Part shown: positions 61,930 to 63,781 of the stretch, piece after piece
Layout: each line of letters starts with the position of its first letter
How positions within the stretch are numbered: position 1 is the stretch's first letter
Assembly: GCA_035546775.1 (NCBI GenBank)
Contig: DASZWD010000057.1
Span: 62,001 to 126,000 of the forward strand
Direction of reading: 5' to 3'
Source of the DNA: Acidimicrobiales bacterium
Lineage (GTDB): Bacteria > Actinomycetota > Acidimicrobiia > Acidimicrobiales > JACCXE01
DNA length: 64,000 nucleotides
Translations under genes and position numbers: made by a program
Notes under the pieces: generated by a model
Told to the model about the DNA's origin: nothing
Databases searched by the model: none
What the model saw: only the letters and a program-made list of their open reading frames with translations

Positions 61930-62793
61930 ATGGCACCGCACCCCGTTCGCCGGCTCGGCACGCTCGTCGAACCGCTCGCCGCCGCCGTCTACTTCGCCCC
62001 CGAAGCGCACGCCGCCTACGCCGAGCTGGGTGACTGCGGTGACTTCTGGGCGCCGTACTACGCCAGTCGCGGCGCCTGCCTGGGAGAGACGCCCGGCCTC
62101 GTCGTCGCCGCGGCCTTCGGCGTATTCAACCCGGCGCACATCGCCGAGCAACTCGAGGTGGCGTGGAAGGTGGCGACGCCGGCGCAGTGGTGGACGGCGC
62201 GCGTACAAGGGGCCACCGCGCAACTCGAACGGCTGCTGGGTCCGTCGCCTGAGGGCGCCGAACGCGCCACCGAGTTACTGCGCCGCATCGCGGATGCGAG
62301 CCCGATCTCGGGCCATCCCTTTTTCGCCGGGCTCGTCAGCCAGCCCTGGCCCGGCACCGTCGTCGGTGACCTCTGGCACGCGGCCGACCTCGTGCGCGAG
62401 CACCGCGGCGACACCCACACCGGCGCGTACAACACTCTCGGGTTCACCGCCGTCGACATGATGATCATGACGGAGCTGTGGTGGGGTCTGCCGCATGGCC
62501 TGTACCTCGCCAGCCGGCACTGGGACGACGCATCGATTGCCACCAGCGTCGAGCGCCTGCGCGCCCTCGGATACGTCGACGGCGATCCGATCAGCCTTAC
62601 CGCGGCGGGCGTCACCGCACGCGTCGCCGTCGAAGACGCCACTGATGTCGGCGAAGCGGCGGTGCTCGACGCCCTAACTGACGCCGAGCGCGACGAGTTG
62701 TTCACTGTCCTCAAGCCGATGGCGGCCTCGATCGTCGCCGGCGGTGGTTACCCCGCCGACCCCGACGAGCGGGACTTGCCTGGGGTCGGCTGA
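61930..62793 (+). CDS. SCO6745-type protein
   Basis: 287 residues from ATG 61930; TACGTT about 8 bp upstream could be the -10 of a leaderless transcript. LGTLVEPLAAAVYFAPEAHAAYAELG and GDFWAPYYASRGACLGET are typical of a helical actinobacterial family named after SCO6745, with a winged-helix-like C-terminus. Function unknown. The 3' end overlaps the convergent SRPBCC gene by 46 bp. Confidence 0.82.
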   Translation: MAPHPVRRLGTLVEPLAAAVYFAPEAHAAYAELGDCGDFWAPYYASRGACLGETPGLVVAAAFGVFNPAHIAEQLEVAWKVATPAQWWTARVQGATAQLERLLGPSPEGAERATELLRRIADASPISGHPFFAGLVSQPWPGTVVGDLWHAADLVREHRGDTHTGAYNTLGFTAVDMMIMTELWWGLPHGLYLASRHWDDASIATSVERLRALGYVDGDPISLTAAGVTARVAVEDATDVGEAAVLDALTDAERDELFTVLKPMAASIVAGGGYPADPDERDLPGVG

Positions 62794-63230
62794 GCCAACA
62801 ACCCGTGAAGGCGCCGCATCGAGGTGGCGTTGTTGCGCTTGAGGTAGGCGCGCGTGAACGGGGCGGTAAGGCGGTCCAGTAGGGGCGCCACGATCCAGCG
62901 GTATTCGAAGGTGACGCGCGTGCCGCCGTCGGGCAGCGGCGCCAGGGTGTAGGTGCCCTCGCCGACGCGGCCGGCTTTCTGCGCACGGTTCCGCTCCACG
63001 ATGCGCGTCGGGGACTCGGCGTCGATCACCTCGATGTCGATGACGTCGGCGACGCCCAGCGCCTTCGTGCGAACGCGCGCCTTCGAGCCGACGCCGCGCG
63101 CCGGGCCCGACAATTCCCAGTCCCGCATCAGGTGGTCGTTGAACGGCTCGTGGTTCGCCATCACGTCGAGGAAGTCGTAGACGCGAATTTGCTCGACGGG
63201 GACGTCCACGGAAACGGTGACCGGCTTCAT
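62748..63230 (-). CDS. SRPBCC family (START-like) protein
   Basis: 160 residues from ATG 63230. VSVDVPVEQIRVYDFLDVMANHEPFND opens a Bet v1-like fold; LSGPARGVGSKARVRTK and PDGGTRVTFEYRWIV complete the strands. These bind hydrophobic ligands in a cavity. Divergent from the TetR gene with 14 bp between start codons, so likely repressed by it and perhaps induced by its own ligand. No room for a Shine-Dalgarno sequence outside the palindrome. Confidence 0.9.
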   Translation of the reverse strand: MKPVTVSVDVPVEQIRVYDFLDVMANHEPFNDHLMRDWELSGPARGVGSKARVRTKALGVADVIDIEVIDAESPTRIVERNRAQKAGRVGEGTYTLAPLPDGGTRVTFEYRWIVAPLLDRLTAPFTRAYLKRNNATSMRRLHGLLAQPTPGKSRSSGSAG

Positions 63231-63247
63231 GTACCATATGGTACATG
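63228..63247. promoter_or_regulatory. Perfect 20-bp palindrome joining two divergent start codons
   Basis: CATGTACCATATGGTACATG reads the same on both strands. Its first three bases are the complement of the SRPBCC ATG and its last three are the TetR ATG. A TetR dimer bound here would cover the start of both genes. The site also contains two GTACC arms and the NdeI-like centre CATATG. Confidence 0.85.
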
Positions 63248-63781
63248 TCCGGCGACCCGAGGCAAACGCTGCTCGACGCCGCCATCGACTACGTCGCCGA
63301 CAACGGCCTCACCGATTTGTCGCTGCGCAGCCTGGCCGCGGAGCTCGGAACGAGCCACCGCATGCTCATCCACCACTTCGGCTCCAAGGAGGCGTTGTGG
63401 GTGGCGATTGTGCAGGCCGTCGAAGCGCGCGAGCGCGCCGGGCTCGCCGGGTTGCTCCCCGACCCAGAGTTGCCCTTCGACGAACAGATGCGGGCGTGGT
63501 GGCGCCACATCTCGCACAAGTCGCTGTGGCCCAACGAGCGGCTGTTCTTCGAGATCTACGCCCAGGCGCTGCGGGGCGGGCCGACGGCGCACTTCCTCGA
63601 CGACATCGTCGACGCGTGGGTGGAGCCGATCGCCGCGGCCTCGGGATCTGCAGCCTTCGCCCGGTTGTGCGTGGCCGTGACCCGCGGCTTGTTGCTCGAC
63701 CTTCTCGCCACGCAGGACCGCAAGGCGGTCGACGCGGCGATGGACTACTTCATTGCCCGGGTGCAGCCTTCCGTTCGATGA
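63245..63781 (+). CDS. TetR family transcriptional regulator
   Basis: 178 residues from ATG 63245. The HTH is LSLRSLAAELGTSHRMLIHHFGSKEALW at ~25-52. The C-terminal ~120 residues form the ligand-binding/dimer domain (TetR_N followed by WWRHISHKSLWPNERLFFEIYAQAL). Its ATG is one end of the 20-bp palindrome, so it should repress itself and the divergent SRPBCC gene. Overlaps the convergent gene at the 3' end by 32 bp. Confidence 0.93.
   Translation: MSGDPRQTLLDAAIDYVADNGLTDLSLRSLAAELGTSHRMLIHHFGSKEALWVAIVQAVEARERAGLAGLLPDPELPFDEQMRAWWRHISHKSLWPNERLFFEIYAQALRGGPTAHFLDDIVDAWVEPIAAASGSAAFARLCVAVTRGLLLDLLATQDRKAVDAAMDYFIARVQPSVR

What the first reader, a model, noticed from the sequence alone, without database searches (positions are those of the whole stretch)
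63228..63247. Perfect 20-bp palindrome whose ends are the two start codons
The whole space between divergent SRPBCC and TetR genes is one palindrome, CATGTACCATATGGTACATG. No space is left for ribosome binding sites or for separate promoters, so both mRNAs are probably leaderless and each promoter lies inside the other gene. The operator is at the same time the initiation region of both genes.
Basis: partly seen in the sequence, partly recalled or inferred. Interest (0 to 1): 0.6.

Follow-up and report, generated by a model that had tools for sequence, protein, structure and literature searches.

The report
Operator, promoters and start codons fused
In an actinobacterial genome, one perfectly symmetric 20-base DNA element between two back-to-back genes appears to be at once the repressor's binding site, the core of both promoters and both start codons; comparison with relatives supports this, but each ingredient is already known.

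Summary
CATGTACCATATGGTACATG (63228-63247) is a perfect palindrome, unique in the genome. Its two ends are the only usable start codons of a SRPBCC gene (- strand) and a TetR-family gene (+ strand). The core TGTACCnnnnGGTACA is a conserved operator: it occurs at 43 of 49 distinct loci with this TetR, across Actinomycetota, and the divergent or co-directional partner is almost always SRPBCC.

The leaderless reading is well supported from sequence. In this genome TAnnnT (-10) boxes are enriched only 6-10 nt before start codons, mode exactly 7. The window has TACCAT + 7 nt + ATG on both strands and no Shine-Dalgarno. In homologues, a start codon inside the operator arm goes with TACCnT in 19 of 20 cases, against 13 of 50 otherwise.

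They abut in the palindrome core (TACCAT|ATGGTA); only the -35 regions lie in the other gene. Two abutting -10s also explain why the site is perfectly symmetric.

Each ingredient is known (TetR operators, leaderless genes, bidirectional promoters). The complete two-sided fusion was seen only here among 395 genomes of the class. No transcript or binding data exist.

The parts
63228..63247 (.). Perfect 20-bp palindrome CATGTACCATATGGTACATG; predicted TetR operator, shared promoter core and both start codons
   Evidence: core TGTACCnnnnGGTACA at 43/49 homologous loci
63228..63230 (-). ATG start codon of the SRPBCC gene, predicted transcript +1 at 63230
   Evidence: only in-frame start; -10 at gap 7
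63245..63247 (+). ATG start codon of the TetR gene, predicted transcript +1 at 63245
   Evidence: only in-frame start upstream of the HTH; -10 at gap 7
63232..63237 (+). TACCAT, predicted -10 box (TAnnnT) of the TetR gene
   Evidence: gap of 7 nt to ATG, the genome's modal gap
63238..63243 (-). TACCAT, predicted -10 box (TAnnnT) of the SRPBCC gene, abutting the other -10
   Evidence: gap of 7 nt to ATG
63245..63781 (+). TetR-family regulator, 178 aa (HTH 9-54)
   Evidence: PF00440 E 9.1e-10; AF2 model pLDDT 90, TetR folds in PDB; recognition helix TSHRMLIHHFGS nearly invariant
62748..63230 (-). SRPBCC (START-like) protein, 160 aa
   Evidence: PF10604 E 1.2e-07; AF2 model pLDDT 91, best PDB match MSMEG_5634 7wa9, TM 0.78

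Best explanation
The palindrome is the operator of the adjacent TetR-family autorepressor, fused with a bidirectional leaderless promoter. Two abutting TAnnnT -10 boxes (TACCAT|ATGGTA) form its core, and RNA polymerase in either orientation starts RNA at the A of the ATG at the opposite end, the two starts being 15 bp apart. Both mRNAs begin at AUG and are translated without a Shine-Dalgarno sequence. When the TetR dimer binds TGTACC-N4-GGTACA it covers both -10 boxes and both +1 sites, so it shuts off its own gene and the SRPBCC gene together. A small hydrophobic ligand, perhaps the one handled by the SRPBCC pocket, is proposed to release it. Perfect symmetry follows from two demands: a dimer operator, and a T at -10 position 6 on both strands. 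Shown by sequence: palindrome, forced starts, -10 spacing, conservation, no SD. Inferred: binding by this TetR, the transcription starts, repression and the ligand.
For: Operator: GTACCnnnnGGTAC lies at 43 of 49 distinct loci with this TetR; the recognition helix is nearly invariant. The 20-mer class CATGTACCNNNNGGTACATG occurs in 4 of 395 class genomes, all at this locus, with 0 control hits; two more in the phylum both lie at a SRPBCC start. Own genome: one exact core, next best a 1-mismatch site. Leaderless: in 478 kb of this genome TAnnnT before candidate starts peaks only at gap 6-10, mode 7 (32/702 against about 0.3% per gap elsewhere); 67 of 413 genes at gap 6-8 against 7 in the control. 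32 of 36 homologous TetR starts have TAnnnT at gap 5-9, nearly all without SD. Coupling: start inside the operator arm with inner TACCnT 19/20, against 13/50 elsewhere, Fisher 8e-8; starts 8-12 nt beyond the core with outer TAC[A/G]nT 29/32. The window needs T on both strands and has TACCAT on both. Precedent for the method: TAnnnT near -12 marks leaderless genes in Actinobacteria (PMC3160421; PMC3898074).
Against: No transcript, binding or expression data. -35 matches are poor on both sides and the sigma-70 scan finds nothing, although high-GC actinobacteria often lack a -35 consensus (PMC3898074). Homologous loci are phylogenetically related, so the Fisher values overstate independence, and the start-to-operator distances were tabulated by hand. 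One in-arm start (L045) has TACCAC, and a few relatives (L038, L043, L050, L052) look leadered with an SD on one side.
Confidence: 0.8

Rival explanations
1. The palindrome is the TetR operator, but one or both transcripts start deeper inside the opposite gene and carry a leader that is antisense to it; the ATG overlap merely reflects gene compaction.
For: No good -35 at the expected distance; some relatives have SD-led starts on one side (L038, L043, L050, L052).
Against: No SD upstream of either ATG; -10 at the genome's modal 7-nt gap on both strands; the in-arm start goes with TACCnT.
Confidence: 0.1
2. Only the SRPBCC side is truly leaderless from the palindrome; TetR transcription starts elsewhere, as in the closest relative L037, where TetR has its own second degenerate operator and -10.
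For: In L037 (same order) SRPBCC starts in the arm, while the TetR start lies 34 nt away behind TACAGT+8.
Against: In the window no second operator or other start exists, and TACCAT+7+ATG is present on the TetR strand too; other relatives (L025, L041, L044) also start TetR in the arm with TACCAT.
Confidence: 0.08
3. The palindrome is a chance sequence or serves something else (restriction site, hairpin, site for another regulator).
For: 20-bp perfect palindromes are not extremely rare in this genome.
Against: The same core sits at the same place in 43 of 49 homologous loci and tracks this TetR.
Confidence: 0.02

Closest known systems
Leaderless tetR of Tn1721 (Baumeister et al. 1991, cited in PMC7148126 and PMC4681348)
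   Same: TetR repressor whose mRNA lacks a 5' leader
   Different: From general knowledge, its divergent target is not leaderless and there are two separate operators between the genes; here both genes look leaderless and share one operator
Bidirectional promoters by -10 symmetry (PMC10268837, PMC12825309), e.g. acrR/acrA
   Same: Divergent starts within 7-25 bp on shared promoter DNA; a TetR autorepressor gene is a studied case
   Different: Those -10s overlap (commonest start distance 18 bp) and the 2026 paper does not mention leaderless RNAs; here the -10s abut, predicted distance is 15 bp, and starts coincide with start codons
Rv1129c/prpD of M. tuberculosis (PMC3898074)
   Same: Divergent regulator/target pair, both with mapped leaderless mRNAs
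   Different: Starts about 120 bp apart by the paper's coordinates
Mycobacterial divergent TetR regulators with palindromic motifs (PMC4482099)
   Same: Conserved palindrome between TetR and divergent target
   Different: Start codons and leaderless starts are not discussed there

Membership tests
TetR family of transcriptional regulators | N-terminal TetR_N HTH domain | tested here: met
   PF00440 38.6 bits, cutoff 24
TetR family of transcriptional regulators | All-helical fold of about nine helices | tested here: met
   AF2 model pLDDT 90; PDB TetR matches, TM up to 0.75
TetR family of transcriptional regulators | Dimer binding to a palindromic operator near its gene | tested here: inconclusive
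   Conserved palindrome present; binding itself not testable here
Leaderless genes of Actinobacteria | TAnnnT 6-8 nt upstream of the start codon, no SD | tested here: met
   TACCAT+7 on both strands, no SD; genome-wide peak at gap 7
Leaderless genes of Actinobacteria | Mapped transcription start at the start codon | not testable with these tools
   no RNA data
Bidirectional promoters | Divergent transcription starts 7-25 bp apart sharing -10 DNA (definition in PMC10268837) | tested here: inconclusive
   Predicted starts 63230 and 63245 are 15 bp apart, but starts are inferred and the -10s abut rather than overlap
SRPBCC / Polyketide_cyc2 | START-like helix-grip fold | tested here: met
   PF10604 32.6 bits, cutoff 27.4; 7wa9 TM 0.78

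The most novel reading that the evidence does not exclude
A fully two-fold symmetric control element in which operator, two abutting -10 boxes, two transcription starts and two start codons share the same 20 bp. Nearly every base then has at least two duties, and neither gene can change its start, promoter or repression alone. It would be the end point of a compaction series visible across a conserved SRPBCC-TetR module of Actinomycetota.
Probability: 0.7. Interest if true: 0.5.

Novelty: new variant of a known kind. Interest (0 to 1): 0.42.

Why it matters
If true it is about the smallest possible regulated divergent gene pair: transcription initiation, translation initiation and repression of two genes in 20 bp. 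It gives a natural test of competition between RNA polymerases at a symmetric promoter and of leaderless translation under one repressor. The comparative series also shows how -10 boxes can be embedded in a dimeric operator in two registers (inner TACCnT or outer TAC[A/G]nT).

Tried and rejected
Chance palindrome: rejected because of conservation. Alternative start codons: excluded by in-frame stops and absence of other starts. Multi-site regulon: no second exact site in the genome (2-mismatch hits are fewer than in the control pattern). Consensus sigma-70 promoters or terminators: none found. A named family for this TetR: only generic TetR matches in NCBIfam and PDB, all below cut-offs or weak. 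Literature search for the operator sequence gave only unrelated papers, and none was found on this SRPBCC-TetR pair.

Full report
Observation. The sequence at 63228-63247 is exactly CATGTACCATATGGTACATG, a perfect palindrome, unique in the window and genome. The G of each ATG is the last base of the palindrome on its side. The strict intergenic space is 14 bp. The + strand gene 63245-63781 is a TetR-family regulator (PF00440, 38.6 bits), the - strand gene 62748-63230 a SRPBCC protein (PF10604). Both start codons are forced: each is the first possible start after an in-frame stop, and for TetR no other start precedes the HTH. Perfect 20-bp palindromes are not exceptionally rare here (2 in the window, 9 in another 400 kb), so palindromicity alone is not the argument.

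Operator. A search for TetR relatives gave 30 loci from named genomes and 20 further genomes of the same class. After removing duplicates, 43 of 49 loci carry GTACCnnnnGGTAC close to the TetR gene or in front of the SRPBCC-TetR unit. The loci come from Solirubrobacterales, Streptomyces, Micromonospora, Acidimicrobiales and others. The six without it are one Streptomyces with two one-mismatch copies and five more distant Nocardia/Streptomyces proteins. The neighbour is SRPBCC in nearly all. The recognition helix (TSHRMLIHHFGS and close variants) is nearly invariant. The longer form CATGTACCNNNNGGTACATG exists in 4 of 395 class genomes, always at this locus, with no control hit, and in two further genomes of the phylum, both at a SRPBCC start. 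In its own genome the exact core occurs once, so the likely regulon is just this gene pair.

Leaderless starts. I called genes crudely by codon usage in 478 kb of this genome (413 genes) and counted TAnnnT before candidate start codons at every gap. Enrichment is confined to gaps 6-10 nt with the maximum at 7 (32 of 702 against about 0.3% elsewhere); 67 genes have it at gaps 6-8 against 7 for a control gap. This is the signature used to recognise leaderless genes in Actinobacteria (PMC3160421), and TANNNT is the mapped -10 of M. tuberculosis, where about a quarter of genes with a primary start are leaderless and no -35 consensus was found (PMC3898074). The window has TACCAT, 7 nt, ATG on both strands and no SD.

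Coupling between start codon and operator. Two registers appear across homologues. If the start codon is the ATG of the operator arm, the inner half of the operator reads TACC[A/G]T on that strand, a -10 at gap 7 (19 of 20; 13 of 50 for other sides; Fisher 8e-8). If the start lies 8-12 nt beyond the core, the outer arm reads TAC[A/G]nT, mostly TACACT or TACAGT, a -10 at gap 5-9 (29 of 32) (values tabulated by hand). 32 of 36 TetR starts have a TAnnnT at gap 5-9. The window uses the inner register on both sides. That demands T at the sixth position on both strands and hence the self-complementary centre AT|AT, which explains why this copy is perfectly symmetric. Relatedness of loci means the P values overstate independence.

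Promoters do fit: both -10s lie inside the palindrome and abut at its centre. Only the upstream RNAP contacts reach into codons 1-10 of the other gene. No consensus -35 is present on either side.

Mechanism. Predicted +1 positions are 63230 (-) and 63245 (+), 15 bp apart, inside the 7-25 bp range that defines bidirectional promoters (PMC10268837). RNA polymerases in the two orientations would compete for the same DNA, and a bound TetR dimer would block both. The SRPBCC protein has the START-like fold (AF2 model, best PDB match MSMEG_5634), suggesting that regulator and target handle the same small molecule; this last step is only a guess. TetR identity beyond the family is unknown.

Evolution. 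The closest relative of the same order, L037 (TetR 64-66% identical, SRPBCC 78%), has the same kind of operator with SRPBCC starting in its arm, then a second degenerate site and a separate TetR -10 and start. Other relatives start only TetR in an arm (L025, L041, L044) or only SRPBCC (for example L004, L008, L013, L017, L018, L020-L023, L026). The window is the only case found with both, so it looks like the compact end of a series.

Novelty. TetR operators, leaderless repressor mRNAs (Tn1721 tetR), divergent doubly leaderless pairs (Rv1129c/prpD) and bidirectional promoters are all known. What is new is the complete fusion, and a conserved SRPBCC-TetR module with its operator, which I could not find in the papers searched. 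The literature searched is open-access only.

Noticed in passing
G000:C30:312060/312080 (L073:12060-12080), C30:298429/298462 (L072), C30:135532/135597: Other divergent gene pairs in the same genome in which both starts have TAnnnT at gap 6-9 (probably both leaderless), without palindromes.
   Followed up: partly
G000:C30:84549-84572 (L062): Near-perfect palindrome GTTACTTGTCAGCTGACAAGTAAA in a 71-bp divergent intergenic space, probably an operator of another regulator.
   Followed up: no
L025, L038, L039, L040, L042, L043: Two copies of the operator core exactly 16 bp apart, back to back (GGTACATGTACC or GGTACGTGTACC at the junction); suggests binding of two dimers in register.
   Followed up: no
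L018, L020-L023, L026, L045: Rearranged version: operator, SRPBCC and TetR on one strand as an operon, SRPBCC ATG still inside the operator arm.
   Followed up: partly
window 62748-62793 and 63750-63781: SRPBCC and TetR genes each overlap the 3' end of a convergent neighbour (SCO6745-family HTH_67 gene; ABM-domain gene), so the whole region is extremely compact.
   Followed up: no
window 61820 (-) and 61930 (+): Another divergent pair whose candidate starts both have a TAnnnT at leaderless spacing.
   Followed up: no
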